The position numbers were made by a program, and so were the translations under genes. 64,000 nt of DNA from Ramlibacter sp. (GTDB lineage Bacteria; Pseudomonadota; Gammaproteobacteria; Burkholderiales; Burkholderiaceae_C): positions 62,001 to 126,000 of the forward strand of contig JAQZBU010000001.1 of assembly GCA_029237735.1 (NCBI GenBank), given 5' to 3'. The notes under the pieces were generated by a model. It worked only from the letters and a program-made list of their open reading frames with translations. It did not search any database and was not told where the DNA came from. This document shows positions 12,614-63,186 of this stretch, one piece after another. Numbering within the stretch: the first letter of the stretch is position 1; each line of letters starts with the position of its first letter.

Positions 12614-13327
12614 TTAGCCCTCGCGCGGAACGCCGATCTCCTCGCGGGCTTCCTCATCCTCTTCGCTCTCGTACCCCTCGGGGCCGAGCTGCGCCGCGGC
12701 AATGTCGTAGAGCAGCCCTGTCCACCAGGTCAGCCCCGGCGCCGCCGCTCGGGCCAACTTCGCGAGCCGGCATTGGCGGCGCTCCAACACCTGTTTCTGT
12801 TCTTCGTTGAACGCCTTCACCAACTGGGCATATCGTTCCCTGGCGGCCTGGCCGTCCCGATCCCATTCCGCACTCGTCGGCCAATCGACGCCGGCTCGGC
12901 TGACCACCTGATCGACCCATGCGGCGCGCGCACGAACTTTGTCGGGCTGACGCCATCGCAGCACGCGCTGCGCGGCGTCGAACATCTGGCTGCCGCGGTT
13001 GGCCTGCAGCGCAGCCTCCAGTCTGTGGTGGTCGAGGCTTCCTTGCACTACGCTATAGAGCGGCACGGGATTGGTGACGCCGAAGTAGTGCGGAGCAATC
13101 ACGCCCGCGCGGAACGCGCGCTCGGTTTCATCGAGAAGGCGCGGATCCAGCGCCAAGCGTCCCAGCAGCAGCAGAGTCACAGCGACGCTGTCGGCCGGAC
13201 CGTTAGGGCCTTCGAAGCTGGTGCGCTCGATGAATGCATCGCTAGCCAGGTATCCGCGCATTGGTACAAGGTGCTCGGGCAAGCGATTCTCGATGGCGGC
13301 GACGCGAACGGGCAAAAAAGTGTTCAT
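12614..13327 (-). CDS. hypothetical protein with acidic C-terminal block (237 aa)
   Basis: Translated from the ATG at 13327, preceded by an AGGA-type ribosome site; a TTG at 13345 is less likely. The protein is soluble and helical, with no recognised domain. The last 20 residues are strongly acidic (Ser-Glu-Glu-Asp-Glu-Glu then more Glu) and end V-P-R-E-G. This resembles the acidic Pro-Arg tails of other proteins on the element. It lies 28 bp downstream of the polyvalent-protein-like gene and is probably cotranscribed with it. Confidence 0.7.
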   Translation of the reverse strand: MNTFLPVRVAAIENRLPEHLVPMRGYLASDAFIERTSFEGPNGPADSVAVTLLLLGRLALDPRLLDETERAFRAGVIAPHYFGVTNPVPLYSVVQGSLDHHRLEAALQANRGSQMFDAAQRVLRWRQPDKVRARAAWVDQVVSRAGVDWPTSAEWDRDGQAARERYAQLVKAFNEEQKQVLERRQCRLAKLARAAAPGLTWWTGLLYDIAAAQLGPEGYESEEDEEAREEIGVPREG

Positions 13328-13354
13328 TGGCGAATTCCTATCCAAGGTTGGGCG

Positions 13355-15010
13355 TCAGCCTCGCGGCGCGGCGGTAGCAACCAGTTCCGGCTCCGCCGGC
13401 GCGAAGTCACCGCGCCGCACGCCTTCAAAGATCCCGAAGACATCCGAGGCTTCGATTCGCTCGCTGCTCTGGGAGCGCAGCCAGGCCGCGATGTCGCGAA
13501 ACGCCTGCCAGACTTGGGCGAACAGCCCGCGGGCCGTCGGCTCGCTCACATCCAGTGAGCCGCGCACAAACAGGGCGAAGCCGTGGGCCGCCGCCTCCTT
13601 CGCGTCGACGCACTGCCGCATGGCGGCAAGATCGCCGCGTTCCTGCAGCAGCTGGCGCACCTGCAGGTTGAGGATGGTTCCGGGTGCGAACTCTTCCTCC
13701 ACAATGCGCCGCTCGCCGGATGTGAGGAAGTACTCGTGCGCGTAGTGCCAGCACTCGTGGTTCAGCGCGAATTCCTTGTCGGCCGCGCGCAGGCTCACCA
13801 TCACCTGGTGGTTTCGCATGCGGCCGGCCACCTGGTGCCCTGCCGACGCATCGTAGAGCCGGTCGAGAAGCTGCACGTGGGCGCGCGAACCCAGCATCTT
13901 GCGGGCCGCGCCCTCCAGGTGTACCCAGTTCATCTGCTCGCGTTCGACGTCGACCTGCCAGCGCGGCACCAGTTGCGCGCGGGAATAGAGCGTCTGGGAC
14001 TGGGACAAGCCCTCACGCAAAGCGTCCGTCATCTCGAACTGGCAAAGGTCCGGCACCAGGGTCGAGCCGATCTGCAGAGACTGGACGCGCACCTGTCCTC
14101 CGTGCGGCTTGATCACCTTGTCGGCTATCCCGCGCAGGATCTCCATGTAGAAGTCGTCGTGACGCTCGCCGGGTTTCACGGTCAAGCCGCCGTTGTGCAG
14201 CCCAGAGCGGATCCACGCGACGCGCTGGATGCCCGGCGTGCTAGCCGCACGCTGAAGCAGCCTACGCAGCACAAGGCCGGCCCAGGTCTTGGTCTCAGTG
14301 ACAAACGCGCCCTTGGGAGTGCCGACCCAGTCGGTTCCTCGGCCGCGCTGCGCCCAGTCGGACTGAACCTCGTCGATCAGGTACAGCCCCTGCTCCGGAG
14401 CGATCACGACACGCGCGTGTGCGAACAGATTTTTGGCGTAGCGCTCTCCGTACTGGTCCTGCCCCGAGAAGTGGGGTGCATGGTATTCGTGGGCCGTGGG
14501 CAACACTTCGTAGAACTTGCGGCGGCGCTTTTCCAGCGCGAGCAGCTTTTCAGGGTCGTCAACCAGCAGTTCAGGGCTGAAGTTGAACTGCTCGATCTCC
14601 CATTCGATTTCCTCGAGTGAGTCTTCGATCACCATCTTTTCGCTACACGCGATGAACAGCAGCTCCTGGTAGCGGCTGCCGGCCAGGTGCTGGGCATGGG
14701 TCCAGCTCGCGTACTGCGGCTTTCCGAGCTGCACTTCCTTTACCGTCACCTTGGTGGCCTCGATCCGGTCGATGATCTCCTGGCGGGTGAGCTTGTCCTT
14801 GCCCAGTCCTTTGAGCCACTCCACCAGTTTGGATTCCTCCAGCTCGGTCGCACGCACCGCCCCCTTCTGCGGCAGCGCCTGAACGGTCTGAATCCATTGG
14901 CCGGCTGGCATCGTCTGGATCTTGGCCGGCAACGCAGCGATGGCGCTGGCCAACCCGGGCTTGAGTAGCGGAGCCTCTCCGGCGTTAAGATACGTGATCT
15001 TGTCGTTCAT
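13355..15010 (-). CDS. polyvalent-protein-like gene with EVQSDW domain and HExxH motif (551 aa)
   Basis: Residues 34-95 match the W-I/L..L-K-G-V-x-x-x-E-L-E..K-L-x-x-W-L pattern that begins the large polyvalent proteins of phages and conjugative elements, and L-I-D-E-V-Q-S-D-W (211-219) is the hallmark of that module. A second region carries N-H-E-C-W-H-Y-A-H-E (H418), an HExxH zinc-peptidase-like motif. Such modules are known from fused polyvalent proteins delivered by phages or conjugation; here two are combined in a short version. The protein ends A-A-P-R-G. The start is the ATG at 15010. The biochemical activity of the first module is not established. Confidence 0.65.
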   Translation of the reverse strand: MNDKITYLNAGEAPLLKPGLASAIAALPAKIQTMPAGQWIQTVQALPQKGAVRATELEESKLVEWLKGLGKDKLTRQEIIDRIEATKVTVKEVQLGKPQYASWTHAQHLAGSRYQELLFIACSEKMVIEDSLEEIEWEIEQFNFSPELLVDDPEKLLALEKRRRKFYEVLPTAHEYHAPHFSGQDQYGERYAKNLFAHARVVIAPEQGLYLIDEVQSDWAQRGRGTDWVGTPKGAFVTETKTWAGLVLRRLLQRAASTPGIQRVAWIRSGLHNGGLTVKPGERHDDFYMEILRGIADKVIKPHGGQVRVQSLQIGSTLVPDLCQFEMTDALREGLSQSQTLYSRAQLVPRWQVDVEREQMNWVHLEGAARKMLGSRAHVQLLDRLYDASAGHQVAGRMRNHQVMVSLRAADKEFALNHECWHYAHEYFLTSGERRIVEEEFAPGTILNLQVRQLLQERGDLAAMRQCVDAKEAAAHGFALFVRGSLDVSEPTARGLFAQVWQAFRDIAAWLRSQSSERIEASDVFGIFEGVRRGDFAPAEPELVATAAPRG

Positions 15011-15063
15011 GTTTCGCAATGAAGGTTATTACGCACTTCATTCTATGGACGCCCTCTCCAAAA

Positions 15064-15083
15064 CATAAACGACCCCGTTTATG
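15064..15083. promoter_or_regulatory. palindromic operator between divergent genes
   Basis: Perfect inverted repeat CATAAACG-ACCC-CGTTTATG between the polyvalent-like gene (minus) and the Wadjet operon (plus). It lies just upstream of the plus-strand promoter, a suitable place for a repressor that controls both transcription units. Confidence 0.55.
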
Positions 15084-24427: not shown

Positions 24428-25405
24428 TCAGCCGAACCGCGGCGCGTGCGCCGGTGTCTCTTGCGCCTCCTCCAGAGGAACGGCCCCCGGGTCCCGCAGC
24501 CGTTCCCGTATCGCGGGCACCGCGGCGACAAATCGTCCCCAAGCGTCAAAATCAACACCGCCCGCCGGGCCGCTCGTCCACCAATTCACATTGGGCAGCG
24601 CGTGCACCTCGAGCTGCGCGCGGAATCCTTCCTGCATCAGCCTCCAGCGCGTCGCCCATGGACTCGCATCACCTACTGCAATGGCATGCGCGCAGCCTTG
24701 TGTGAGCTCCAGGAGCTGCGCTAGCTCGCCTTGCTCCTGCGGCAGCTGCAGGGTACGGAGCTCAACGCCGCGCTCGGCGGCGCCGACGAGATCCGATGCC
24801 GTTTTCTCCATCAGGCCCGAGCGTCCCTTGCGGGCCCAGCCCGAGTGGATCGTGCTGCGCGCCTTGGCCAGTCCTTCGGCAATCCGCTGCGGCTCGACGT
24901 AGAGCACTTCCAGCACGCCCAGCAGCGCGTACGCCTTCGGGCTGGCGCGCAGGCCGCCGATCGTGACATGAAGGCTGTGCCGGCGGTCTCGAGGCAGAAC
25001 CCCCGCCTCGGTCAGCAGGCGCACCTGCTCCACGAGCAAGCCCACGCTTCGCACCGGTGCGAAGGAAAATTCCCAATACCGATCCGCTCCCCTGGGCACA
25101 CCGCATTCGACGGTAAGTGCCAGGCGCCGGCGAAGAGTAACCTCTGCGGCCGCGCACTCGGTGGAGAAAGCATGCAATTCATGGGCTTCCATGTCACGCA
25201 ACGGGCGCCTGTCCAGCCCGTAGCTGCGCCACAGGCCCGGAAAGTAGGAGGAGAAGGGGACCTCCACCTCGATGCCGATCGTGGGCAGCGTGTCAGGCAC
25301 CCCCTCGTCGCGCAGCACGGTGGCGCACGTGACCAGGTTGAACGCAGCCGCGAGCCGCTGGCACACAAGTACCCCGTTGTCGTCGAGCGCTCGGCCTTCG
25401 TTCAC
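24428..25405 (-). CDS. possible amidoligase-like protein (325 aa)
   Basis: Starts at a GTG that overlaps the end of no upstream gene but whose GTGA is shared with the stop side of its neighbour at 25402. Residues 42-48 read T-I-G-I-E-V-E and a later segment reads Y-W-E-F-S-F-A-P, followed by H-S-L-H-V-T-I-G-G. The spacing of G-x-E-x-E, W-E-F and H-x-H-like motifs recalls the glutamine-synthetase-fold amidoligases found in phages and mobile elements. I see this only by pattern. There is no signal peptide. The C-terminus is H-A-P-R-F-G, close to the shared Pro-Arg tail. If correct, it would ligate carboxylates to amines on an unknown substrate. Confidence 0.5.
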   Translation of the reverse strand: MNEGRALDDNGVLVCQRLAAAFNLVTCATVLRDEGVPDTLPTIGIEVEVPFSSYFPGLWRSYGLDRRPLRDMEAHELHAFSTECAAAEVTLRRRLALTVECGVPRGADRYWEFSFAPVRSVGLLVEQVRLLTEAGVLPRDRRHSLHVTIGGLRASPKAYALLGVLEVLYVEPQRIAEGLAKARSTIHSGWARKGRSGLMEKTASDLVGAAERGVELRTLQLPQEQGELAQLLELTQGCAHAIAVGDASPWATRWRLMQEGFRAQLEVHALPNVNWWTSGPAGGVDFDAWGRFVAAVPAIRERLRDPGAVPLEEAQETPAHAPRFG

Positions 25406-25851: not shown

Positions 25852-25853
25852 GA

Positions 25854-27014
25854 TCAGGCCCGCATTGTCTCGCGCAGGTCCTCATCCTCGCCAGCGTCTT
25901 CGGAGGCCCCCCACAACTCTGCGGGCATACGTGTTTCGGGCTTGAGCCTCACGAGCTGGCCGAAGTGGCATTCCTCGCGGGCTACGTCGGTTCGCCGGCC
26001 CAGGTACACCGGCTGCTCGAAGGCGCCGTGAGGGTTGTAATACAGGCACTGGACATCCACGATCTCGCCCACTTCCGGAACCTGGTGGTTGGCCGGAATG
26101 GTCACATTGCCCACGGCCCGTATTTCGCCCGAGCTGGTCAGAAGGCCGATCCTCACCGAACGCTGCCGATTGCGCTCCAGTACCAGACAGCTGGGGCTGT
26201 CGACGAACTTGACCTTGTAAGCAGCAGTGGACCGACCGGCGTCATACGGCGCGTCGCGGTGCTTGAGCACGTAGCCCTCGCCCTTTCGCGCCTCGATCTC
26301 CTGCACGGCCGCCGCTTTCTCCTCCGGGGTGCGCGACACTGGCAGCACCCGCAGAACGTCCAGCAACCCATGTGCGCCGTGGTGAGCGACCAGCCGCTCG
26401 ATCTGCTTCGCGCGGAAGTCGAAGCCCTTGTCGTGGATATCGTTGCCGTACATGGACAGCACGTCGAACGCGTGGAAGTGATCGCCGACCTGCTCCCCAT
26501 CGATCACCGCGCCGCCATCGAGCGCGACACGTTCGAACGCCTTGGGCCAATGGGCGGGAATCGGGCAAAAGAGCCCCAGCTTGTTGATTCCCTTCACTTG
26601 GCCGTCAGGTGTAATGACCAAGCTTCTGCGTTCCCCGTTCGCCTTCTCCTGCAAATACCACCCAGGGCTACGCAGCAACTCGGCCGCGCGCTCGGCGCTG
26701 ATCGGCGTGGGCAGCTGCTGCCGGTGGCCACTCGCCTGCCCGGCCAGCTCGCCGGAGCTGTACGCCTGGCCTTGTTCTCCCTCGTGATAGCCCTTGCGCA
26801 GCTGCTCCTTGAGCTTCTGCTCGAATATCTTGGTTGCCGCGGCAAGATCAATCGGCGCTTCGGTCATCGTTCCCATGCGCAGCGCCTTGCCGCGCGGGCC
26901 GTTGCCGCGGTCGACCACCCAGCCGGCGCCGGCGGGCGCGGCATGCAGGTGCAACTGGTAGACCTTGTCAGAGCCGCCTTCACGGCAATAGAGGGTCACG
27001 AGACGTTCGGACAT
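25854..27014 (-). CDS. ATP-dependent DNA ligase with N-terminal WGR domain (386 aa)
   Basis: From the ATG at 27014, residues 1-75 form a WGR-type domain (V-Y-Q-L-H-L, then W-V-V-D-R-G-N-G-x-R-G). The nucleotidyltransferase domain carries motif I E-K-A-N-G-E-R-R with the candidate adenylated lysine K124, motif III around D-G-E (172-174) and F-D-V-L, motif IV E-G-Y-V-L-K (246-251) and motif V K-V-K (267-269). An OB-like domain follows (about 285-350) before an acidic tail. Motif I has Asn where most ligases have Asp (K-x-D-G), as in a minority of viral and plasmid enzymes. It probably seals nicks during plasmid establishment or replication. Confidence 0.85.
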   Translation of the reverse strand: MSERLVTLYCREGGSDKVYQLHLHAAPAGAGWVVDRGNGPRGKALRMGTMTEAPIDLAAATKIFEQKLKEQLRKGYHEGEQGQAYSSGELAGQASGHRQQLPTPISAERAAELLRSPGWYLQEKANGERRSLVITPDGQVKGINKLGLFCPIPAHWPKAFERVALDGGAVIDGEQVGDHFHAFDVLSMYGNDIHDKGFDFRAKQIERLVAHHGAHGLLDVLRVLPVSRTPEEKAAAVQEIEARKGEGYVLKHRDAPYDAGRSTAAYKVKFVDSPSCLVLERNRQRSVRIGLLTSSGEIRAVGNVTIPANHQVPEVGEIVDVQCLYYNPHGAFEQPVYLGRRTDVAREECHFGQLVRLKPETRMPAELWGASEDAGEDEDLRETMRA

Positions 27015-27030: not shown

Positions 27031-27480
27031 TTAGGGACGCGGAGCAGCGACATCGCTGTCATGCTGCGCAGAGTGGGCGGATTCGAATTCGGTCTCGGTG
27101 AAGACGGGCGGCATGCGGTGCAGCACGCACCAGGCATTGAGCTGATCCCAGAACGAGTCAGGCTCGGGGGCGTACTCGCTGGTGGCGATGCGCAGCACCG
27201 CATCGTGGGCAGGACCCGGGGGGCGGAGGTTTGCGGCCAGCGACAGCAGATTGCGCTCCTTCTGGTCCTCGCCAAGCCAATCCCAGATCCGCTCGAGATC
27301 GCCGTCGAAGTCTTCGGCCACCTTCTCGAGCAGCTCCACGTCGCTCGCCTGGTTCCACCCGCGAAACCCGTCGCGCGCAACCTCGCTCACGAACTCCACG
27401 CGGTCGACCTTGTCCTGGAAGTGTTCGACGATCGCATCGACGAGCTCCGTTCGCACGCGCTGGGACAGAAATGAATCCAT
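27031..27480 (-). CDS. hypothetical acidic protein (149 aa)
   Basis: The ATG at 27480 opens a soluble, acidic, helical protein with several Trp residues and no known motif. The tail is His/Asp-rich and ends A-A-P-R-P, one of the recurring Pro-Arg endings. It lies 16 bp upstream of the ligase gene on the same strand. Function unknown. Confidence 0.6.
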   Translation of the reverse strand: MDSFLSQRVRTELVDAIVEHFQDKVDRVEFVSEVARDGFRGWNQASDVELLEKVAEDFDGDLERIWDWLGEDQKERNLLSLAANLRPPGPAHDAVLRIATSEYAPEPDSFWDQLNAWCVLHRMPPVFTETEFESAHSAQHDSDVAAPRP

Positions 27481-28939: not shown

Positions 28940-29968
28940 TCAGCCGCGCGGGCGAGGCAGATCACCCGCCTCGTCGTTCTCGTCGCGAACGGCCTGCAAT
29001 TGATAACCGGGCTGCGCCGGCGTCGCCTTCCAGGCGTTCACGGCTGCGGCATTCACCCAGACGTTGCGTTCGCCGAGCGATCGGATATGACCGCGTCGGA
29101 GGTGAGCCCGCGGGCTCGCGTGTGAACCGGCGCCGCCCGCGTCCGCAGTTCCCCGGCGGACGTAGCCGCCATCCGCGACCTGCAGGATGCGGGTGTCAAA
29201 GAACGGCGTCTTGCCGGACGCTTCGCGTTTTCGGTTGAGCGGAGCTGGCGCGCGGACAGTCTCCATCGCAACATTTGCGCAAGTCGTCAGCGCGGCGAAC
29301 GCAAGCGCCGCGGAAAGCTCATCCCCCGAATCCGCGCGAAAGATCGCGTCCGCAGCCGCTTCACCGCCCAAGTGGTCCAGGAAGAAGTCATCGTGCGCGA
29401 TGAACTGCACGGGGAAAGCAGGACTGCGTTCGAAGCCCGGGCGAAGCCTGTGGCGCACAAGCTCCAGCTCGAGCTCGGACACATCCCCGGGCTCCGGAAT
29501 CACCGGCTCACGCGCGAGGTCCACGTAGGCCGTCGCCATCACAGGCATCCACGCCTCGTAGTCGTCCATGTAGCTGATCGACTGCACGTAGAGACCTGGG
29601 GCACCAGGCAGGACTCCGCGGGAGGCCGCCGTGCCTTCCAGCAGCGCCGGTTCGGCTTGACGGGCGTCCCAGATCAAGGAAATCCGCTTGCTGGACGGCG
29701 TCTCATGTGCCGCTACGACGCCGGTTGAGCGGTACTCGAGCGCCACCACGGGAAACGGCAGGCGCAGATCATGGAACACGCGGGCCACGCTCCGGTCGTC
29801 ATCCATAAGGCGGCCGCCTTCAGGCAGCACAAACTTCACGGCACGTTCCAGGTCACGGGCGATGCCGCTGAGGACCCGGCGGTGAAGCGCCCCGGGCGCG
29901 CCGGCGAGCTCCTCCCGCCACTGCTGCAGGCAATGGGTCGAGAGGTTGAGGACATCGTTGCGCATCAC
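28940..29968 (-). CDS. hypothetical phage/plasmid-type protein (342 aa)
   Basis: Start is a GTG (29968, followed by an ATG) whose GTGA overlaps the upstream stop. A long helical body is followed by a C-terminal segment (about residues 290-310) with R-A-H-L-R-R-G-H-I-R-S-L. This R-R-G-H-x-R pattern recurs near the ends of unannotated phage and plasmid proteins. The tail is acidic and ends L-P-R-P-R-G. I know of no assigned activity. Confidence 0.65.
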   Translation of the reverse strand: MMRNDVLNLSTHCLQQWREELAGAPGALHRRVLSGIARDLERAVKFVLPEGGRLMDDDRSVARVFHDLRLPFPVVALEYRSTGVVAAHETPSSKRISLIWDARQAEPALLEGTAASRGVLPGAPGLYVQSISYMDDYEAWMPVMATAYVDLAREPVIPEPGDVSELELELVRHRLRPGFERSPAFPVQFIAHDDFFLDHLGGEAAADAIFRADSGDELSAALAFAALTTCANVAMETVRAPAPLNRKREASGKTPFFDTRILQVADGGYVRRGTADAGGAGSHASPRAHLRRGHIRSLGERNVWVNAAAVNAWKATPAQPGYQLQAVRDENDEAGDLPRPRG

Positions 29969-31215
29969 CCGCCTGGTCTGGGGACGGCTGACCCGGCCTC
30001 CCCGGTGTCTTCGTGCGCCTGGATCTGTTCGCGCAGGTCCACCAAGTCCCCCACCAGGTCACCCGCCACCTCGCAATATTCTTTTGCGGCGGTGGCGATG
30101 TTGTGGTCCAGTTGCTGATCGCGGGTCACCCACAGGTCGGTTATGAGCCCCTCATGGGTGAAGTTGAAATCCAGTTGCCCGGGCATGTCCTCCCCCGGCA
30201 CGGGCGTATCTCGCAGCGAGACGCGGATTCCCTCATGAGCGTGCTGCCACGTCACTCCGCCGTCGATGCTGAACTGCATCGCGACGCCTGGCTGGGAGGC
30301 GCCTGCCGCGGCAGCGCCACCCGGGAAAACTGCCGCGGCCAGGTCTTTGATCTCGGAGACCCGCTGATCGACGACCATCGCAAGGGTCGCGCGCTTACCG
30401 GCATCCTCGCGCTGTTGCATTTCCGGTTGGGTGTACGCGCGTTCGGGCTGCAACAGGCCCTCATCTGCCATGTCGCCCAGGAACTTGCGGAAATCCGCGT
30501 CGCGCTCGGCATAGTGTTGCTCCATCGCCGGGGCCAGCCAGGGCAGGTTGAGCTCGAGCAGTCGCCTGCCCTGGCTGCTTAGGTGGCCCTGCCCCAAGAC
30601 GACCTGCAGCATGCTCACCAGCGAGCGCTCACGCGCGGCCGCCGGAGTGGACACCGGCAGGGTATGAAGGACGCCACGCCCGTCAGGCCAGACGCACAGA
30701 TCCCTCAGCAACTGGGGCACAGCCATGCCGGCGCGCGACTTGGCCGTGGGCGAGTCGATCGGAGTCATTGCGCCCCGGTCGCCGACATCGACCCACTCGG
30801 CAGGGGGATTCGCGCCCGCCGGCGCTTTCCAAACGCCGACGAAGCTCCAGCCGTTCGACTCCGCGAATGCGGAAACCATGCGCACATCGAAGGCGCACGC
30901 CACGGCCCCCTGGTCATCCCCGGTCTCGTCTGCATAGGAGCGCCACACCGGGGCTCTGAGCGATCCGCACAGATCGTCGCCGCCCCATGCAACGTCTTCT
31001 GCCGGGGCCGGCCGCGGACGGGTGGCCAGCCGCATGCGCTGGCCGGCGGCCGTGTTCACGATTTGGCATGTCCAGGCCTCGCCCGCACTGAGAGGGTCGG
31101 GGCGAATGCTGGCTGGCAAATGAAGGACCCCGGCGAAGATCACGGCGCCCTCCCCCACACGACGCGTGACGAAGCGCCCGCTTTCAACCTCGACGGTTTC
31201 GATCGACCGGCTCAT
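29965..31215 (-). CDS. hypothetical protein (416 aa)
   Basis: The ATG at 31215 overlaps the upstream stop (ATGA), so the upstream extension of this frame is rejected. The N-terminal half is beta-rich, with Trp residues, and the C-terminal half is helical with Gln/Glu/Asp-rich stretches. No signal peptide or membrane helix is seen. The tail has H-E-D-T-G-E then ends A-V-P-R-P-G-G. It is coupled to both neighbours by stop/start overlaps. Family not recognised. Confidence 0.65.
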   Translation of the reverse strand: MSRSIETVEVESGRFVTRRVGEGAVIFAGVLHLPASIRPDPLSAGEAWTCQIVNTAAGQRMRLATRPRPAPAEDVAWGGDDLCGSLRAPVWRSYADETGDDQGAVACAFDVRMVSAFAESNGWSFVGVWKAPAGANPPAEWVDVGDRGAMTPIDSPTAKSRAGMAVPQLLRDLCVWPDGRGVLHTLPVSTPAAARERSLVSMLQVVLGQGHLSSQGRRLLELNLPWLAPAMEQHYAERDADFRKFLGDMADEGLLQPERAYTQPEMQQREDAGKRATLAMVVDQRVSEIKDLAAAVFPGGAAAAGASQPGVAMQFSIDGGVTWQHAHEGIRVSLRDTPVPGEDMPGQLDFNFTHEGLITDLWVTRDQQLDHNIATAAKEYCEVAGDLVGDLVDLREQIQAHEDTGEAGSAVPRPGG

Positions 31216-31645: not shown

Positions 31646-32173
31646 ATGAACCACGCCCGGGAAATTCCCTCATTGGCCGAACTTGTTGTGGCGATCGCGA
31701 GACGGGTCGGCGCGCGCCGCCTCTCACGCTCCGCGAGCGCTCTTGGCGATGCAGAGTTGTTCGGCCTATGGGCTGGGCAGTTTCAGGCGGAGGTGCGCGC
31801 CGCTGCCCGGAAGGGAGAAGACGACATCGGCGGACTTGAGCCGGCACTCGACCAGTTCGTCCAGGAGCAGGCCCGCGAGGCTGGCTTCCGGGCAGTGGAC
31901 CCCTGGCTGCCCATCAGCCTGCCCGCTTTGAAGGCCCATGGCCAGGGCGATGACAGCAGGCTGTGGCTATTTCACCGAAGTGCCGGCGTGATGCTCGGGA
32001 AGTACGAATGGCGGCAAGGATGGGATCCCGATCGACTGCTGTGTGACGGGGGTGACTATCACGCCTTAGACGAGCAGTTCACCCACTACCTGCCATACAG
32101 CCAGCCGCAGCCGCCTGCCGAGGAGCCCGAGGAAGAGCCGGTCGCCGACCGGCCGGGGCAGCCCAGAAGCTAG
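31646..32173 (+). CDS. hypothetical protein (175 aa)
   Basis: The ATG at 31646 is preferred over an earlier one at 31496 that would overlap the divergent gene. The protein is soluble; its middle reads as a compact alpha/beta domain with W-L-P-I-S-L-P-A-L and a Trp/Asp-rich segment. The tail is Pro/Glu-rich and ends P-G-Q-P-R-S. It converges on and overlaps the regulator gene at 32170 by 4 bases. Family not recognised. Confidence 0.55.
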   Translation: MNHAREIPSLAELVVAIARRVGARRLSRSASALGDAELFGLWAGQFQAEVRAAARKGEDDIGGLEPALDQFVQEQAREAGFRAVDPWLPISLPALKAHGQGDDSRLWLFHRSAGVMLGKYEWRQGWDPDRLLCDGGDYHALDEQFTHYLPYSQPQPPAEEPEEEPVADRPGQPRS

Positions 32174-50721: not shown

Positions 50722-51171
50722 TTAGCCGCGCGGCTGGCAATGAACAGCGATCGCCTCATCGGCGTCGTGGCGGACGCGGGCCCTTTCGTCGGCGGTGTTG
50801 AACAGCTCGTCGGGCACGTCGACTTCTGCGCCCAGCTTGAACGTCACCCAACAACGCATGGCAGCAATCAATACCGTCTCCCCGATAGCGCTCAAGAACT
50901 GATCGCCGTTGGACCGAAAGACCTGAACCCGACCACTGAACGTGGCTTCCTGTATGGCAAAGCCCTGCGCGATCATCGTGTCCAAGATCGGACCGCCATG
51001 ATCCCAACGTTCGCAGTAGCGCGCCTGTTGATGCAACGGGTGCCCGGATCGCAGGTCCAGGAAGCTCTTGACGTGCTCCGGGTTATTCGCGTCCCACCTA
51101 CCGTGCAACGCGACGATCACCGCCCAATCAAGGGCGGGGCCGGCCGGGAGCTCACTCGATTTGACCTTCAT
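50722..51171 (-). CDS. NinX/DUF2591-like protein, copy 2 (149 aa)
   Basis: The ATG at 51171 begins with K-V-K-S-S-E-L-P-A-G-P-A-L-D-W. The signature middle (W-D-H-G-G-P-I-L-D) and end (A-A-M-R-C-W-V-T-F-K-L-G-A-E-V-D-V-P-D-E-L) follow, then an acidic stretch and V-H-C-Q-P-R-G. It is intact and 15 bp from each neighbour. It shares a 36-bp identical segment with copy 1. The family comes mostly from phages; activity unknown. Confidence 0.75.
   Translation of the reverse strand: MKVKSSELPAGPALDWAVIVALHGRWDANNPEHVKSFLDLRSGHPLHQQARYCERWDHGGPILDTMIAQGFAIQEATFSGRVQVFRSNGDQFLSAIGETVLIAAMRCWVTFKLGAEVDVPDELFNTADERARVRHDADEAIAVHCQPRG
50803..50838. repeat. 36-bp segment identical to 50326-50361
   Basis: Second member of the identical pair described at 50326-50361, inside DUF2591-like copy 2. 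Confidence 0.75.
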
Positions 51172-51185
51172 GGGTACCCGCTTGG

Positions 51186-51575
51186 CTAGTTCCGGGGCCT
51201 AGCGCCAACGTCATGCTCCTCGTCCGCTTCAAGGCACACAACCAACTCGCTAGGCACCTTGACCTCATCGCCCTTGATGCTGATGACCCAGCAACGCATC
51301 GCCGCAACCAGGGCATTGGGCCCAAACGCGTTGAGCGGGCTCTGGCCCCGAATCGTTGCCTCGACATCGTTCCAGGGATGCGGGCGGTGGCGAATATCGA
51401 TCTTCTCGCGGTCCATGATCGGCCAGGCCAAAGCCGCGTCGCTGGAATAGCGCCCGAGGTACGACATCGGCCGATCGATGATCTGCCGCATCATCCCGGA
51501 TGCGTGCGGAACGCACGAGCACGCCAGCCAGTCGAGGATGCGGCCCTCAGCCTCACTCACCTTGATCTTCACCAC
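51186..51575 (-). CDS. NinX/DUF2591-like protein, copy 3 (129 aa)
   Basis: Starts at a GTG (51575, or the next codon, also GTG) and begins V-K-I-K-V-S-E-A-E-G-R-I-L-D-W. It keeps N-A-L-V-A-A-M-R-C-W-V and E-V-K-V-P-S-E-L, and is shorter because the loop after the W-P-I-M-D region is reduced. The tail is acidic and ends G-A-R-P-R-N. It is the most diverged of the array but still complete. Confidence 0.7.
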   Translation of the reverse strand: MVKIKVSEAEGRILDWLACSCVPHASGMMRQIIDRPMSYLGRYSSDAALAWPIMDREKIDIRHRPHPWNDVEATIRGQSPLNAFGPNALVAAMRCWVISIKGDEVKVPSELVVCLEADEEHDVGARPRN

Positions 51576-51597
51576 GTCTAAATCTCCCAGTTATGTT

Positions 51598-52149
51598 TCA
51601 GTTCCGCGGCGCAGCTTCGCCGGCACCGGATTCGTCGTCATGAGACGCATGGTCGACCTCGCGGTCGAGATGAGCGAGCAACTCGTCGGGCACGTCGACT
51701 TCTTCGCCGAGGCGAGAAGCAACCAAGCACCTCAGCTTGGCGACCAGTTCAGTCGGGCCCTCGAAACGTTGGCGCCGCGGGTGAACCTCATACGACAAGA
51801 TCCCGTAGCGCTGGCCGCCGATGTACGTGAGCTCATTCCAGCTCGCCCTCTGGCCATCGCCGAGATCTTTCATCGCGATCGCGTACCAGATGCCACTCTT
51901 TGCCTGCTTGCGCACGGCAATGCCCTCTTGTTCGCTGATCGGGCCGCCTTGAGCCCAGTTGGTGGAAGGCTTCCAGCGCAAGCCGCTCCCGCATACCTCC
52001 ACGCCGTCGACGATCTTCGAGGGCCGGAAGAAGCACTCTTCAGGCGTTCCATCTTCGTAGGCCGTGATCTGGACGTCGGTCCAACCGAGCGCTGCGGCCG
52101 CCGCCCAATCCAGAGCGTCGTCGATGAGGACTGCTGTTTTGATTTTCAC
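51598..52149 (-). CDS. NinX/DUF2591-like protein, copy 4 (183 aa)
   Basis: Homology with the other copies and an AAAGG site place the start at the GTG at 52149 (K-I-K-T-A-V-L-I-D-D-A-L-D-W). It has the longest version of the domain, with S-T-N-W-A-Q-G-G-P-I-S-E-Q-E-G-I and L-R-C-L-V-A-S-R-L-G-E-E-V-D-V-P-D-E-L. The acidic end reads G-E-A-A-P-R-N. This copy is closest to the phage NinX form, so it may be the parent of the array. Confidence 0.75.
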   Translation of the reverse strand: MKIKTAVLIDDALDWAAAAALGWTDVQITAYEDGTPEECFFRPSKIVDGVEVCGSGLRWKPSTNWAQGGPISEQEGIAVRKQAKSGIWYAIAMKDLGDGQRASWNELTYIGGQRYGILSYEVHPRRQRFEGPTELVAKLRCLVASRLGEEVDVPDELLAHLDREVDHASHDDESGAGEAAPRN

Positions 52150-52162: not shown

Positions 52163-52591
52163 CTAGCCGCGGGGCACCGGATCATCGGTGCCTGGCTCTT
52201 CGATCGGCGTGATGCGCCGTCGCGTCATGCGGGCGTAGATCTCGCTCGCGGGGCTGGTCGCAGCGGAAGGGGCTGATGACGACGAGGGAACGGCAAGCGC
52301 AGCACGCGCCGCCAAGCGCTCGAGCCACCTGACCTGGTCGTCGCTGATGTAGAGAAGTTTGCCGCCGTCTCGTCCACCGGCGACGTCATGCTGGGTAGCG
52401 CGAGAACGCAGGTCGTTCAGAAAGTCCAGTTCACGCGCATTCAGGCCCATCAAGCCAAACGCCGCATCGAGGTCGCGCTTTCTCTTCGCAAGGAGTAGAT
52501 CCTGCCGCTCATCGAACTCGCGCTGAGCGCGGTCGATGTCGGCTTGGCGCTCTGCAGGACTCCGGTTCAAGAGTTTGGTGAAATCGACCAT
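52163..52591 (-). CDS. hypothetical protein (142 aa)
   Basis: The ATG at 52591 begins a basic-acidic helical protein (residues 10-45 coiled-coil-like, R-S-P-A-E-R-Q-A-D-I-D-R-A-Q), followed by a compact segment with W-L-E-R-L-A-A-R-A and a Ser/Ala linker. It ends D-D-P-V-P-R-G. It lies between the RecD2-like operon end and the DUF2591 array. Function unknown. Confidence 0.55.
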   Translation of the reverse strand: MVDFTKLLNRSPAERQADIDRAQREFDERQDLLLAKRKRDLDAAFGLMGLNARELDFLNDLRSRATQHDVAGGRDGGKLLYISDDQVRWLERLAARAALAVPSSSSAPSAATSPASEIYARMTRRRITPIEEPGTDDPVPRG

Positions 52592-56253: not shown

Positions 56254-56943
56254 TCAGCCGCCGCGGGGCGCCGGCGTGGGTTCTGCGGCCTGGTCGACTG
56301 CACCGCCCGTGCGAAGGCGCGCCCCACGCAACCCCAGAACCCGCTCGTGCGCCTCTGCTGCGTGCACGACACGATATGTCCAGCGGACCGTGTCCTGCCC
56401 GACGTGCTCCAGGCGCGCGCTGGCGTTGTGCCAGGCCTCATGGGCCCCGAGGCGTTCGTCGATCAACAGGGCCTGCTCCAGGAACATGGCGTGGACCGCG
56501 GCCAGGTTCGCGGCGTCGAGTACTACCAGGCCGCGTTCGGCTGCCTTGTGGAGCTCGAAGACGATAGGACGCGCGAACGCGCTCTCGGCGCGCGTCGCCT
56601 CCCACTCTTCGCGGCTGAAGGCGCTGCCCGCGGGCCGGGTCGGATCGTCCCAGGCTAGGAGTCTCGACTCGACGGCGGCCGCTTGCGGTACGGGCGGACG
56701 GGCGCTCACCTTCGCAAGGCGATCGAACACAGATTCGGCTGCCCGTGGAGCAGTACGTGGCGGGGCAGGACGCTCTTTCTTTCCGGTGACTTCGGCGTAA
56801 CTGCGTGATGGTGCAACGGGTGCGGCCTCTGCGAGCGCGAGCTCGAGCTCGTCAAGTGCAGCATCCTGCTCGGCCTGCACCATGGCCGGCGCCGCCCGCA
56901 TCCTGCGGAGGCGTTCGGTGATGGAAAGGGTCTGCTCTGTCAT
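56254..56943 (-). CDS. hypothetical protein (229 aa)
   Basis: The ATG at 56943 starts a Glu/Ala/Arg-rich protein with a disordered Pro-rich N-terminal third, carrying I-T-E-R-L and V-F-D-R-L segments similar to those in the neighbouring helicase's N-terminus. A helical core follows (about residues 130-210) with H-A-M-F-L-E-Q-A-L-L-I-D and H-E-A-W-H-N. It ends P-T-P-A-P-R-G-G. It is 11 bp after the primase-like gene's stop side on the same strand and likely belongs to the replication operon. Confidence 0.6.
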   Translation of the reverse strand: MTEQTLSITERLRRMRAAPAMVQAEQDAALDELELALAEAAPVAPSRSYAEVTGKKERPAPPRTAPRAAESVFDRLAKVSARPPVPQAAAVESRLLAWDDPTRPAGSAFSREEWEATRAESAFARPIVFELHKAAERGLVVLDAANLAAVHAMFLEQALLIDERLGAHEAWHNASARLEHVGQDTVRWTYRVVHAAEAHERVLGLRGARLRTGGAVDQAAEPTPAPRGG

Positions 56944-59340: not shown

Positions 59341-59823
59341 TCAGCCGCCGCGGGGAGCCTGATCCGTTTGGCCGGGCTCCTCGGGCTGTTCCTGCCTCTG
59401 GAACCGTGCTTGGGCCACCTGCGCGTCCCATGAGGGCTTGTCCATGAGCCTGACGAACGGGGTCATGGCGTCCACGCCCCACTGCTGCGCGACGATCATG
59501 TTGGCCACGAAGAGCTTCGGCCGGTTTTGCTCGCTGTGGCGAGTTTGCGCGCTCCAGGCGGCGCTGACTGCTTCAGCAACGCACCGCCGGAGAAATTCGG
59601 GGGTGCCCTCCCCGACCTGCGTTCGAGTTCGGTTGAAGGCGACCCAGGCCGCCTCGATCTGCTCCTCGGCCGGGGGCTGCAGCCCGGTCGCGCAGGCGCT
59701 GCGCAGCGCCATGAAGCGCCGGCGCAGGGCGATCCGCGCCGCATCGACCTGCGCGCTGTCGCCCGCAAGGGCGGCCGTCATCAAGTTGTCGATGAGGAGC
59801 CTGTCGTTGGATTCGTCGTTCAA
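59341..59823 (-). CDS. hypothetical protein with QAPRGG tail (160 aa)
   Basis: Start set at a TTG at 59823 with an AAAGGG site, since the longer frame runs over three other genes. The protein is helical and Ala/Arg/Gln-rich (A-A-L-A-G-D-S-A-Q-V, then W-V-A-F-N-R-T-R) with a conserved-looking F-V-R-L-M-D-K-P-S-W segment. It ends in a Gln/Glu/Pro stretch and Q-A-P-R-G-G. Function unknown. Confidence 0.6.
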   Translation of the reverse strand: MNDESNDRLLIDNLMTAALAGDSAQVDAARIALRRRFMALRSACATGLQPPAEEQIEAAWVAFNRTRTQVGEGTPEFLRRCVAEAVSAAWSAQTRHSEQNRPKLFVANMIVAQQWGVDAMTPFVRLMDKPSWDAQVAQARFQRQEQPEEPGQTDQAPRGG

Positions 59824-59848: not shown

Positions 59849-60133
59849 TCACACCCCGGGGCGCGGTGCGGCTTCGAGCTGCTGCTCCTGCTCCAGCTCT
59901 GCATCCGCTCGCTCGAGTTGGCGCAACCGCTCCTCCTCCGTGCCCGAGCCGTCGTCGGAAAAGTACGCCGAAATGGATCGCATACCGCACTCCGGGCAGT
60001 CGTCATCGACTTGCGCATCCCAGCCGTCATCCCACTGGTGACGGCAGCACGGGCACCGGTAGTGGTTGGTCCACCAGGTGCTTTCCTCGGCGGGTTCCTG
60101 CCCGCCAGTGGGGCCGCTAGACGGTTGCGCCAT
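59849..60133 (-). CDS. small zinc-ribbon protein (94 aa)
   Basis: The ATG at 60133 overlaps the previous gene by 17 bp. A Gly/Pro/Ser N-terminus leads to Y-R-C-P-C-C-R-H-Q-W and D-D-D-C-P-E-C-G, two Cys pairs that can bind zinc. The C-terminal 40 residues are an acidic Glu/Gln/Leu helix ending E-A-A-P-R-P-G-V. A nucleic-acid or protein adaptor is plausible. Confidence 0.6.
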   Translation of the reverse strand: MAQPSSGPTGGQEPAEESTWWTNHYRCPCCRHQWDDGWDAQVDDDCPECGMRSISAYFSDDGSGTEEERLRQLERADAELEQEQQLEAAPRPGV

Positions 60134-60443
60134 CGGCCGGCTCGTACCAGGATTCGGGGATATAGCCAAGGGCGCCGAGGAGGTCCCAGCCGCGCGTGTC
60201 GAGTTCGTCCAGTGCCGCCTCGTTCACCGAGCCGCCGATCAAGGCATGCAGGTACGCGGGCTCCTTGCAAGCGCGCCACCAGTCGTACTCCTGGCTCCAC
60301 TCGCCGGCCAGGAGAAACGACACCGTCACCGGCGGCGTGTTCTCGCCTTCCCCTGCGCGGATGCGTGTCGTGAGCGAGAGCGCCTTGTTGCCCGAGTGAC
60401 GGATCTCGCGGGGCAAGCCGCTGGGTTGTAGAAGCATGGTCAT
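60117..60443 (-). CDS. hypothetical protein (108 aa)
   Basis: The ATG at 60443 (or the one at 60437) gives a soluble protein with W-S-Q-E-Y-D-W-W-R-A-C-K in the middle and an acidic helical end. It overlaps the zinc-ribbon gene. No known domain. It belongs to a run of small coupled genes between 59.3 and 63.2 kb. Confidence 0.55.
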   Translation of the reverse strand: MTMLLQPSGLPREIRHSGNKALSLTTRIRAGEGENTPPVTVSFLLAGEWSQEYDWWRACKEPAYLHALIGGSVNEAALDELDTRGWDLLGALGYIPESWYEPADGATV

Positions 60444-60459: not shown

Positions 60460-60765
60460 TCAGCCGCGCGGTGCCGGCGCGACGCTTGCGTCGTCGGCTT
60501 CTTCCGACTCGCCAGCGTCATTTCTGGACGTTTCCACAAGGCGCGCCCGCGACGCCCAGCCGATTCCTGTGAGCTCGTGACGGGAGCCGTCGTAGGCTTT
60601 GACCGTGAGGCTGTCCACCGAGCTGATGCCGGTCACTTCGCAGGTTCCGAGCGTGGCCGTCTCCACCAGGTCGCCGCGCGCCAGCCTGCCTTCCTTGGCC
60701 AGGCGCACGATCTTGATGTGTCCCGGCTTGACGGGATCCAGAGGGTGCGAGGAGTTTGCTGTCAT
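60460..60765 (-). CDS. hypothetical small beta-rich protein (101 aa)
   Basis: The ATG at 60765 overlaps the neighbour at 60762 (ATGA). Residues 15-75 look like a small beta-barrel (H-I-K-I-V-R-L, G-D-L-V-E-T-A-T-L-G-T-C-E-V, L-T-V-K-A-Y-D-G-S), possibly SH3- or KOW-like. An acidic tail with S-E-E-A-D-D ends A-P-A-P-R-G. Unknown function. Confidence 0.55.
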   Translation of the reverse strand: MTANSSHPLDPVKPGHIKIVRLAKEGRLARGDLVETATLGTCEVTGISSVDSLTVKAYDGSRHELTGIGWASRARLVETSRNDAGESEEADDASVAPAPRG

Positions 60766-61546: not shown

Positions 61547-61573
61547 ACGATTGCTTTCATGATGTCTGGTGTG

Positions 61574-62170
61574 TCACCCACCCGACTCGATGGGCGCCTC
61601 AACAGACCTGTTGCATTCCGTGAGGTGGGTGCGTGCGAACTGGGCGAGAACGTCGAACGCCTCTCCGACGCCGAGCCGCTCGATCAGATAACAGGCCACC
61701 CCATGCGCACCTTGGTTCGACGCACTTACCGCCTGGGCGACCTCTGCGTTGAGTTCGCCGGCGTCGCCGGCGGACCCCTGAATGCGTTCGGCCACGGTGA
61801 TGGCCACATCGGCCAGCGCGTTGCATTCCCAGGAGAACCACGCCCTGCCCTGCTGCTGCATGAGAGATTCCAGGCCAAGGGCCTCGTCAAGGCGCACCAG
61901 CATCTGGCTCGCGAGGTCTTCCGGGGTCACCTTCAGCCTCACCGAGACCTCGAGGCTCTGGAGATCCTGGCCGCTCATGATCGGCTTGATCTGCATGTCT
62001 TGTGCAGCATGGACCTCCACGTCCGGCGCGATCAGCTTGGCGATCACGTCACGCGCGAGCACCTCGCTGATATGGCGGTGGCGCTGCGCGCTCGTGCGCA
62101 GCAGGTCCTGCCGGTCGACAGCGCGCGACGGGCCCGCGGCGACAGTTTGGCCGAGCGTGGGCATGATCAC
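61574..62170 (-). CDS. hypothetical protein (198 aa)
   Basis: The GTG at 62170 overlaps the upstream stop (GTGA); an ATG at 62164 is an alternative. The protein is mostly helical, Ala/Glu/Gln-rich, with a beta-rich middle (V-E-V-H-A-A-Q-D, L-E-V-S-V-R-L-K-V) and no membrane segment. It ends E-A-P-I-E-S-G-G. Family not recognised. Confidence 0.55.
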   Translation of the reverse strand: MIMPTLGQTVAAGPSRAVDRQDLLRTSAQRHRHISEVLARDVIAKLIAPDVEVHAAQDMQIKPIMSGQDLQSLEVSVRLKVTPEDLASQMLVRLDEALGLESLMQQQGRAWFSWECNALADVAITVAERIQGSAGDAGELNAEVAQAVSASNQGAHGVACYLIERLGVGEAFDVLAQFARTHLTECNRSVEAPIESGG

Positions 62171-63186
62171 CGGTCCGTGTCGTAGCCGCTGTCTTGGAAG
62201 TCTTCGTCGCCGAGTTCATTGCTCAGGGCGAGATCCTCCCGTTGCAGGTCGCGCACGGCGGCGACATCGACCGGTTCCAGGTGCAGGCCTGCGGCGTCGT
62301 TCTTGTACGCTTGGTGCATGTAGTCGATGGCGCGCGGCAGCGCCTCGAGGTTCGGTGCCACGACGTACATGAGGGCGCGCACCGTCGCATCCACGCCCTG
62401 GAAGCCGCGCCACGCGTCGGGCGTGATGTCGACGCGTGCCGCCTGCTCGACCGCTTCGGGGGCTTGCGCCTGGGGCGCTTCCTCCGGCTGTGCGCCGGGC
62501 CCGTCGAAGAAGCTGCGGATGAAGCTGCGAACGGGCGGTGCCATCGGCGCCGGGGCCGCCGTCGGGGCGGGCGCGATCTCAGCGGGGTGCGCATCCAGGC
62601 GGGCGGCCTCGATCGCGCGGGCATCACCCGTGAGTGCAGAGCGAACCAGAACGCGTGCGCGGCCGGCCGGATCGACTTCGATCGAGCGCTCCTTCGCGCG
62701 CATCGAGCCGATCATCGTGGCCGCCCCGTCCAGATAGCTGCCGTGGCTGTGTACCTCGCCTTTGACCAGCACAGGCACTTCGTAGACGTTCATGCCCACG
62801 CTTTCCAGGTGCTCGCGAACCCCGCGGGAGACGGCCGCACCCTCGCCGGCGAGCAGCGCCTGGCCAATGTCGGGCATCGCGCCTTCTTGCGTGCTGGAGC
62901 GCGCCGCGTACAGACTTGCCCAGCGGGCGCCCAGTCCGAACAGGATCTGCGCTTTGGCGATGTCAGCGTCGGCATCGGGTACGTCGCGCATCTCGATGCC
63001 GGAGGCGCGCACCGGAATCTGCGGCAGTTGCGTGAAGAGATGCGAAACGCGGCGGAACTCGGGTGCCGGCGTGAAGATCAAGGCGTCGGGCGCCTCGGGC
63101 TTGGCGGCCGCCGTGCCGTACACGCCGCGCAGGACTTGGTCGTACAAGTAATTGCCGGTCGAGGTGACGATGGCGATGGTGGTCAT
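62167..63186 (-). CDS. hypothetical protein (339 aa)
   Basis: From the ATG at 63186 an N-terminal alpha/beta region (I-A-I-V-T-S-T-G-N-Y then a helix) continues to a conserved-looking segment with F-G-L-G-A-R-W-A-S-L-Y, a V-H-S-H-G-S-Y-L-D-G-A motif and a Pro/Ala linker (about 210-250). The C-terminus is acidic. No domain is recognised. It lies 62 bp downstream of the UvrD-like gene on the same strand. Confidence 0.6.
   Translation of the reverse strand: MTTIAIVTSTGNYLYDQVLRGVYGTAAAKPEAPDALIFTPAPEFRRVSHLFTQLPQIPVRASGIEMRDVPDADADIAKAQILFGLGARWASLYAARSSTQEGAMPDIGQALLAGEGAAVSRGVREHLESVGMNVYEVPVLVKGEVHSHGSYLDGAATMIGSMRAKERSIEVDPAGRARVLVRSALTGDARAIEAARLDAHPAEIAPAPTAAPAPMAPPVRSFIRSFFDGPGAQPEEAPQAQAPEAVEQAARVDITPDAWRGFQGVDATVRALMYVVAPNLEALPRAIDYMHQAYKNDAAGLHLEPVDVAAVRDLQREDLALSNELGDEDFQDSGYDTDR

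What the first reader, a model, noticed from the sequence alone, without database searches (positions are those of the whole stretch)
12614..63186. A recurring acidic plus Pro-Arg-Gly/Asn C-terminal tail on many unrelated proteins
Sixteen proteins of different families end with Pro-Arg followed by Gly, Asn, Pro or Ser within the last five or six residues: the genes at 13355, 27031, 28940, 29965, 31646, 37007, 38976, 41626, 50722, 51186, 51598, 52163, 56254, 59341, 59849 and 60460. Close variants end 12614 (PREG) and 24428 (PRFG). Many have an Asp/Glu-rich block just before. The tails use different codons (CCG CGA GGC, CCG CGC GGG, CCC CGG AAC, CCG CGG AAC, CCG CGT CCC) and all three stop codons, so selection looks to be on the peptide, not a DNA repeat. 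None of the recognised dot/icm genes at the left has it. Acidic C-terminal blocks (E-block) are known in Dot/Icm substrates, so one hypothesis is that these are passenger proteins sent to the recipient by the type IVB channel. Alternatives are a protease or adaptor tag, or a compositional bias of GC-rich ends.
Basis: partly seen in the sequence, partly recalled or inferred. Interest (0 to 1): 0.82.

Follow-up and report, generated by a model that had tools for sequence, protein, structure and literature searches.

The report
Shared C-terminal tag on plasmid proteins
Many unrelated proteins encoded by a family of large bacterial plasmids end in the same short tag, which may be the address label that sends them, with the plasmid's DNA, through the plasmid's Dot/Icm-type channel into the next cell.

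Summary
All 16 listed ends are in the sequence. On the contig that holds the window, 11 of 229 called genes end exactly in PRG, against 0 of 434 on 25 other contigs of the draft genome. "xxxPRG" is the most enriched C-terminal motif there and in two other elements, unnamed relative G377 and Variovorax RA8 plasmid 3. Codon choice is ordinary, so the peptide is selected. In eight Dot/Icm-type elements, 67 acidic+PRx ends fall into 53 clusters.

Tagged proteins are predicted soluble and rarely machinery. Two more distant Cupriavidus plasmids use RxRM, so the tag follows plasmid lineage, not host genus. DNA ligases on four DotM-bearing plasmids end PRG, PRG, PRA and MRA; none of four on DotM-less plasmids ends so, though one ends RLAA.

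Best reading: an address read by the plasmid's type IVB coupling complex (0.55). Transport is untested; another plasmid-encoded reader is the main rival. On ColIb-P9 1 of 26 ends read is PRx, orthologues often lack the tag, and in five of the eight elements PRG is not significant.

The parts
12614..13327 (-). tag-bearing protein (variant), ends EEDEEAREEIGVPREG
   Evidence: no Pfam, NCBIfam or PHROGs match
13355..15010 (-). tag-bearing protein, ends VATAAPRG; family found in all eight elements, with an EIQSDWAQ-like motif; 4 of 8 members have a PR- or RM-type end (AAPRG, APRMAA, AAQRMAA, RPRMR)
24428..25405 (-). tag-bearing protein (variant), ends AHAPRFG
25854..27014 (-). ATP-dependent DNA ligase-like protein, variant end EDEDLRETMRA; orthologues on related DotM-bearing plasmids end DQPRA, DRPRG, ERPRG
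   Evidence: Pfam DNA_ligase_A_M, PHROG 114
27031..27480 (-). tag-bearing protein, ends SDVAAPRP
28940..29968 (-). tag-bearing protein, ends GDLPRPRG; a W01 homologue ends SHPRPRG, a pEMT1 homologue ends RPLKP
29965..31215 (-). tag-bearing protein, ends GSAVPRPGG
31646..32173 (+). tag-bearing protein, ends ADRPGQPRS
37007..37260 (-). frame ending GAVAAPRG with a GIY-YIG-like stretch (by eye); no standard start, probably the 3' part of a frame-shifted gene
38976..39287 (-). tag-bearing protein, ends VNYPRP, little acid
41626..41991 (-). tag-bearing protein, ends DASRPRG
50722..51171 (-). NinX-like protein with tag beyond the domain, ends HCQPRG
   Evidence: Pfam PF10765 residues 6-110 of 149
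51186..51575 (-). NinX-like protein with tag beyond the domain, ends GARPRN
   Evidence: Pfam PF10765 residues 5-99 of 129
51598..52149 (-). NinX-like protein with tag beyond the domain, ends GEAAPRN
   Evidence: Pfam PF10765 residues 4-93 of 183
52163..52591 (-). tag-bearing protein, ends DDPVPRG
56254..56730 (-). tag-bearing protein, ends PTPAPRGG, little acid
59341..59823 (-). tag-bearing protein, ends TDQAPRGG
59849..60169 (-). probable tag-bearing protein (TTG start, not called by my gene caller), ends EAAPRPGV
60460..60765 (-). tag-bearing protein, ends SVAPAPRG
3238..3960 (-). IcmJ/DotN-like protein, no tag; relatives found in six of nine elements compared, itself included
   Evidence: NCBIfam NF038221, below cut-off
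6210..7439 (-). IncI1 TraO-like type IVB protein, no tag
   Evidence: NCBIfam NF033884 below cut-off
7436..8500 (-). DotH/IcmK type IVB protein, no tag
   Evidence: Pfam PF12293
8865..9488 (-). DotI/IcmL type IVB protein, no tag
   Evidence: Pfam PF11393

Best explanation
The tail is a short C-terminal address tag. An acidic, low-complexity linker is followed by Pro-Arg-Gly (also PRA, PRN, PRP; MRA-type ends may be variants), or by RxRM in a more distant Cupriavidus pair. It is appended to soluble proteins encoded by a family of large Dot/Icm-type (type IVB) plasmids of Burkholderiales. Most likely the plasmid's coupling complex (DotL- and DotM-like proteins, in some elements with a DotN-like one) reads it and sends these proteins into the recipient during mating, where ligase, primase, recombinase and antirestriction-like proteins would help the incoming DNA establish itself. 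Shown here: the tag exists, acts at peptide level, is shared by unrelated predicted-soluble proteins, is rare on the machinery, follows plasmid lineage and not host genus, and in one protein family goes with DotM-bearing plasmids. Inferred: recognition by the coupling complex, and transport.
For: Data-driven motif scan: xxxPRG is the top C-terminal motif in three of eight elements (11 found vs 0.08 expected, 12 vs 0.05, 13 vs 0.12; Bonferroni 6e-17, 3e-21, 1e-18); RxRM is top in W07 (3e-6) and W09 (7e-6); no significant Arg motif in 515 genes of other contigs or in the DotM-less Rhodoferax T118 plasmid. PRx ends: 85 of 1,644 element genes against 5 of 516 genes of other contigs. 67 acidic+PRx ends in 53 clusters. 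Codon and stop use of 43 PRG ends from seven elements is close to average, with 31 different 12-mers. Membrane-like segment: 1 of 67 tagged against 270 of 1,559 without a PRx end (hydropathy only). Machinery 1 of 177 against 66 of 1,467 others (p=0.008); with an RxRM-type pattern in W07/W09, 0 of 41 against 15 of 169. Ligases: PRx in 3 and MRA in 1 of 4 on DotM-bearing plasmids of this group, neither in any of 4 on DotM-less plasmids, including the two plasmids of Variovorax WDL1. DotM and DotL homologues are in all eight elements and W07. Cargo types fit: YqaJ-like, weakly PrimPol-like. Legionella DotM binds acidic C-termini (PMC5802825, passages).
Against: No translocation or binding was measured. 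On ColIb-P9, a type IVB plasmid (IncI1), only 1 of 26 protein ends read fits PRx (a DUF4942 protein ending PPRV) and none is PRG; three further DotM-bearing plasmids (W10-W12, read in part) show no PR- or RxR-type motif below 0.05. So the tag is not general to type IVB conjugation. PRx is not significant after Bonferroni in W04 and W05, not among the top motifs in G236 and W06, and weak in W01 (0.012). Orthologues often lack it: where one member of an orthologue pair ends PRx, the other does too in 12 of 80 pairs. The strawberry-notch protein of this contig ends VAPAA. The supposed variants are not convincing on their own: RMAA/RLAA ends 11 of 1,644 against 1 of 516, MR-type ends 11 of 1,644 against 1 of 516. 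One DotM-less ligase (Rhodanobacter) ends ARLAA, which would count if RLAA were taken as a variant. No relaxase was recognised in the window's element, so the one obligatory substrate could not be checked. Of the DotM patches named as binding sites in PMC5802825 only R314/R315 could be placed, and only the first Arg is kept (by eye).
Confidence: 0.55

Rival explanations
1. The tag is a recruitment tag read by another plasmid-encoded protein, for example a replication, partition or establishment scaffold, and has nothing to do with transport.
For: The acidic tip of SSB, which recruits partners, is a precedent (recalled).
Against: Tagged families are functionally mixed (NinX-like, a relative of a Fic protein, a methyltransferase). 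The ligase comparison ties the tag to DotM-bearing plasmids, but such plasmids share other genes too, so this does not separate the two readings.
Confidence: 0.23
2. The tag is a degradation signal read by a protease or adaptor, for example to limit these proteins in the donor.
For: Some possible variants end RMAA, RLAA or QRMAA, close to the LAA end of ssrA-type tags (the ClpX motif is recalled).
Against: The commonest end, PRG, is not such a signal. Plasmids of one host genus (Cupriavidus W01 against W07 and W09) differ in tail while plasmids of different hosts share it, which a host protease does not predict. No plasmid protease or adaptor was looked for.
Confidence: 0.1
3. The ends are a by-product of G+C-rich sequence, of gene calling or of a dispersed DNA repeat.
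For: Pro, Arg and Gly codons are G+C-rich; the element has somewhat more acidic ends than the other contigs (72 of 229 against 84 of 434).
Against: 0 of 434 genes of other contigs at similar G+C end PRG; internal Pro-Arg rates predict 0.7 ends where 17 are seen; ordinary mixed codons; of 18 annotated gene ends re-read on Variovorax RA8, 12 end PRx; T118 has one PRx end and none with acid among 191 genes.
Confidence: 0.02
4. The tag directs proteins elsewhere than the recipient, for example to a membrane site or phage-like particle.
For: DarB, an archetype of the helicase proteins of this kind, is packaged in the phage P1 head (PMC5512222, passages).
Against: A Dot/Icm machine is present on every element compared. 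Phage packaging genes were not searched for.
Confidence: 0.05

Closest known systems
E-block / acidic Glu-rich C-terminal signal of Legionella Dot/Icm effectors, bound by DotM (PMC5802825, passages seen)
   Same: acidic stretch near the C-terminus; a DotM homologue on the same replicon
   Different: here the last three residues, PRG, are the conserved part; carriers are plasmid proteins, many with DNA functions where known, not effectors for eukaryotic hosts; in W07 and W09 the end is RxRM
C-terminal positively charged signals of type IVA substrates (VirF, VirE2; recalled)
   Same: short C-terminal end with Arg; R-x-R spacing in the W07/W09 tails
   Different: the window's tails are acidic before the end and carry usually one or two Arg
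Proteins transferred by F-type plasmid pED208 (PMC8406263, start of abstract in a search listing) and the F 'conjutome' (PMC11288057, passages)
   Same: a conjugation machine delivers many proteins, among them DNA-metabolism proteins
   Different: not a Dot/Icm system, and the passages describe varied C-terminal and internal signals rather than one shared short tag
Polyvalent proteins of conjugative elements and phages (PMC5512222, passages)
   Same: DarB-like and strawberry-notch helicases, primases and LPD1 proteins, proposed to be delivered with DNA
   Different: no delivery signal in the passages seen; here a possible one is found, mainly on smaller proteins

Membership tests
Dot/Icm (type IVB) acidic C-terminal translocation signal | acidic block within about 25 residues of the C-terminus | tested here: met
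   18 of 21 tailed proteins of the contig have at least 3 Asp/Glu in -24..-4, against 101 of 208 others
Dot/Icm (type IVB) acidic C-terminal translocation signal | encoded together with DotM and a DotL-type coupling protein | tested here: met
Dot/Icm (type IVB) acidic C-terminal translocation signal | DotM keeps the Arg patches that bind acidic peptides | tested here: inconclusive
   only the R314/R315 site aligned; first Arg kept, second replaced in the profile (by eye)
Dot/Icm (type IVB) acidic C-terminal translocation signal | hydrophobic residue at -3 or -4 (recalled) | tested here: not met
   of the 16 listed tails, -3 is Pro in 14 and Arg in 2, and -4 is mostly Ala, Arg, Gln or Pro; so it is not filed as this signal, only as working like it
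Dot/Icm (type IVB) acidic C-terminal translocation signal | translocation depends on the tail | not testable with these tools
   needs a mating assay
ssrA-like / ClpX C-terminal degron | ends in Leu-Ala-Ala or close variant (recalled) | tested here: not met
   PRG is the main end; RMAA/RLAA ends are 11 of 1,644 element genes
Type IVA Arg-rich C-terminal signal | net positive C-terminal 20-25 residues (recalled) | tested here: inconclusive
   window tails are rich in Asp/Glu, but net charge was not computed, nor were W07/W09 tails scored
Polyvalent proteins | large multi-domain proteins with known polyvalent domains beside a type IV secretion system | tested here: inconclusive
   fits a few carriers or near-carriers: strawberry-notch protein (untagged on this contig), DarB-like, LPD1 and KfrB proteins on W09/W11; most tagged window proteins searched have no known domain

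The most novel reading that the evidence does not exclude
These plasmids mark an injected proteome with a plasmid-lineage-specific peptide address. In the best cases some 15-20 otherwise unrelated proteins per plasmid carry the same short C-terminal tag, the tag has changed together with the type IVB coupling apparatus in different plasmid lineages, and it can be gained by new proteins, so that the cargo carried to the recipient can be read from sequence.
Probability: 0.5. Interest if true: 0.9.

Novelty: new variant of a known kind. Interest (0 to 1): 0.8.

Why it matters
Conjugation machines are known to carry proteins as well as DNA, but in the passages I read the signals are described as varied. 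A short shared tag would let one list candidate passenger proteins of a whole plasmid family from sequence, suggest a role for dozens of unknown genes, and supply a simple handle (three residues and one receptor) for testing how a type IVB channel chooses its cargo.

Tried and rejected
Rejected: G+C composition, dispersed DNA repeat, and gene-calling artefact. A genome-wide DNA pattern count (CCNCGNGGNTGA) was of little use because it ignores frame: 16 of 197 matches on this contig, which is 4.1% of the bases. Pfam, NCBIfam and PHROGs give no function for most tagged window proteins given to them. The 1,853-residue protein of pEMT1 was first suspected to be the relaxase; it is a DarB-like methylase-helicase, and its 511-residue neighbour is PezT-like. 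No relaxase family appeared among the element proteins given to Pfam or NCBIfam; the element was not annotated completely. On ColIb-P9 only 1 of 26 ends read fits PRx. A phage search with 13355 found nothing. A Variovorax RA8 GIY-YIG protein read for comparison with 37007 has no tag. A comparison of the last three residues in pairs where both members end PRx is circular and is not used as evidence. No structure was predicted: the tool takes relatives only from certain sources, and a single-sequence model would not bear on the question.

Dropped before counting: ORFs without a stop inside the contig, under 40 residues or under a codon score of 12 are not called by my script. W06 genes were re-called with a looser trainer, because only 51 were called at first. 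W06 was read to 160,000 of 160,419 bases, W10 80,000 of 82,083, W11 100,000 of 100,133, W12 80,000 of 103,148. The machinery list (30 genes) is my own choice from family hits, operon position and pilus gene order.

Literature: six searches of the PubMed Central library listed no paper whose title or shown abstract describes such a tag; only listings and, for four papers, passages were seen. bioRxiv is not held.

Full report
What was checked. The window is bases 62,001-126,000 of a 237,590-base contig (C197) of a 5.75 Mb draft genome, given as 94% complete and 8% contaminated. I read all of C197 and called genes with a codon-usage method of my own. Two are weak as genes: 37007 has no standard start and looks like the end of a frame-shifted gene (by eye), and 59849 was not called but is plausible.

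Is it more than chance? On C197, 21 of 229 genes have PR[GNPS] within the last six residues against 5 of 434 genes on 25 other contigs of the draft (p=1.1e-6); 11 of 229 against 0 of 434 end exactly PRG. Inside the window it is 14 of 66, on the rest of the contig 7 of 163. G+C is similar (0.645 against 0.605-0.695). Pro-Arg inside the same proteins is rare enough that 0.7 such ends are expected where 17 are seen. A blind scan of two- and three-residue motifs in the last six positions put xxxPRG first among 6,257 motifs (11 found, 0.08 expected); the null model treats residues as independent. Codons and stops in 43 PRG ends from seven elements are close to average use, with 31 different 12-base endings, so selection is on the peptide.

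Is it conserved? A tagged protein (13355) had matches in 4 of 399 genomes searched in the family, its own included and one of them weak. Two lie on contigs with the same Dot/Icm backbone (G236:C22, 177,743 b; G377:C139, 235,300 b), which I read whole. Of 3,917 plasmid records with a coupling-protein match (40 listed), the eight closest are 41-52% identical; I read five of these eight: Cupriavidus pinatubonensis p1 (W01), Variovorax RA8 plasmid 3 (W02), two Achromobacter plasmids (W04, W05) and Janthinobacterium pJAB4160 (W06). Acidic+PRx ends number 15 in C197, 5 in G236, 18 in G377, 3 in W01, 19 in W02, 2 in W04, 3 in W05, 2 in W06; together 67, in 53 clusters joined by any BLAST hit below 1e-6. 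PRG is the top motif also in G377 (12 vs 0.05 expected) and W02 (13 vs 0.12). In W01 the PRx motif has a Bonferroni value of 0.012; in W04 and W05 it is not significant, and in G236 and W06 it is not among the top motifs. On W02, 12 of 18 gene ends re-read at annotated coordinates end PRx.

Orthologues. Where one member of an orthologue pair ends PRx, the other does too in 12 of 80 pairs, four of the 12 being the close relatives W04 and W05. So the tag is often gained or lost. Some families seem to exchange end types: 13355 (4 of 8 members: AAPRG, AAQRMAA, RPRMR, APRMAA), the DNA ligase (ETMRA, DQPRA, DRPRG), a methyltransferase family (SERMAA, IERMRA, AEAPRG). Taken alone, however, RMAA/RLAA ends (11 of 1,644 element genes against 1 of 516 genes of other contigs) and MR-type ends (11 against 1) are not convincing. 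NinX-like proteins here carry the tail beyond the domain, while the W01 homologues have none.

More distant relatives use a different end. In Cupriavidus gilardii (W07) and C. oxalaticus (W09) plasmids, whose coupling protein is about 35% identical, unrelated neighbours around the strawberry-notch helicase end RMRM, RPRM, SAPRM, RRPKM, RPAKLRM; the top motif is RxRM (Bonferroni 3e-6 and 7e-6). W07 and W09 are related to each other, so this is not two independent cases. A Candidatus Burkholderia verschuerenii locus has ends ARPRM, PRMRL, PRARFRPA in the same gene neighbourhood. W01, also from Cupriavidus, uses PR-type ends, so the tail follows the plasmid lineage, not the host genus. Three further DotM-bearing plasmids (W10-W12, read in part) show no PR- or RxR-type motif below 0.05; their DarB-like protein ends RMRLRM, RFRMRA or IRLRM (three orthologues, not independent), while its relative on the T118 plasmid, which lacks DotM, ends LTEAFC.

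Which proteins carry it? Predicted soluble ones: by hydropathy 1 of 67 tagged proteins has a membrane-like segment against 270 of 1,559 without a PRx end. Of 177 genes homologous to 30 machinery genes of C197, chosen by me, 1 carries an acidic PRx end (W02 390225), against 66 of 1,467 others (p=0.008). Recognisable carriers of PRx ends include DNA ligase in relatives, a YqaJ-like recombinase, a primase with weak PrimPol similarity (E=0.0012), NinX-like proteins, a methyltransferase and a G236 relative of the window's Fic protein. Most tagged window proteins searched have no known family.

Link to the channel. DotH, DotI, DotM and a DotL-like coupling gene are on the element; DotM matches solved IcmP (DotM) chains (E about 3e-19), and the own genome has one DotM match, on C197. 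The cleanest natural comparison is the ligase family. On DotM-bearing plasmids of this group it ends ETMRA, DQPRA, DRPRG and ERPRG; on DotM-less plasmids it ends DEADEA, ELLAA, ARLAA and RRQCA, including plasmid 3 (tag, DotM) and plasmid 2 (no tag, no DotM) of one strain, Variovorax WDL1. The ARLAA end would count as a tag if RLAA were accepted as a variant. A plasmid with a distant DotM match (Acidiphilium) ends PEPGM. I fetched 5 of the 18 plasmid hits for this and already held two others (W02, T118); the four tagged ligases are close relatives.

Reading. A peptide tag shared by unrelated predicted-soluble proteins, specific to a plasmid lineage, mostly absent from the transport machinery and from a homologue on another plasmid of the same strain, points to a plasmid-encoded reader. 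The coupling complex is the best candidate: Legionella DotM binds acidic C-termini, and its authors suggested that other DotMs may have co-evolved with other tails (PMC5802825, passages). Proteins of these kinds are proposed or known to travel in conjugation (PMC5512222 and PMC11288057, passages). What is missing is any measurement of binding or transfer, and a relaxase to check. ColIb-P9 suggests that a type IVB plasmid can do without this tag: of 26 protein ends read there, one (a DUF4942 protein, PPRV) fits PRx and none is PRG.

Noticed in passing
window 18006-24388 (+): Four-gene operon led by a DUF3584 ATPase (1233 aa); four genes in the same order and of similar sizes lie on the Rhodoferax T118 plasmid. 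It resembles an SMC-like plasmid or defence system (recalled); not identified.
   Followed up: partly
window 50722-52149 (-): Three neighbouring paralogues of phage NinX-like proteins (PF10765), all with the tail.
   Followed up: partly
window 37007-37521 (-): A GIY-YIG-like stretch (by eye) is split between two frames; an assembly error or a real frame shift.
   Followed up: no
window 46771-48294 and contig position 172887-174344 (window +110887): Two Fic-domain proteins on one element; a G236 relative of the first ends GGPAPRN and a W02 relative of the second ends SDRLAA.
   Followed up: partly
window 48427-49269 and contig position 184520-185497: IS1595-family transposase in the window and a second gene with a near-identical C-terminus elsewhere on the contig.
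   Followed up: no
L003:9551-15853 (-): 2100-residue strawberry-notch helicase protein beside the type IVB operon; the G377 relative has matches on 442 plasmid records, several of those examined being type IVB plasmids.
   Followed up: partly
L170 and L171 (ColIb-P9): Sog primase ends HSPGR and the relaxase NikB ends PPSPG: both end near SPG, possibly chance.
   Followed up: no
L175:7982-8533 (Bordetella flabilis plasmid): A gene annotated as type IV secretion protein IcmW lies directly beside a strawberry-notch gene.
   Followed up: no
window 13355-15010 (-): Family found in all eight elements; the stretch Q-S-D-W-A-Q is invariant in the seven members aligned and resembles a motif of large phage and plasmid polyvalent proteins (recalled); no match in Pfam, NCBIfam, PHROGs or phages.
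   Followed up: partly
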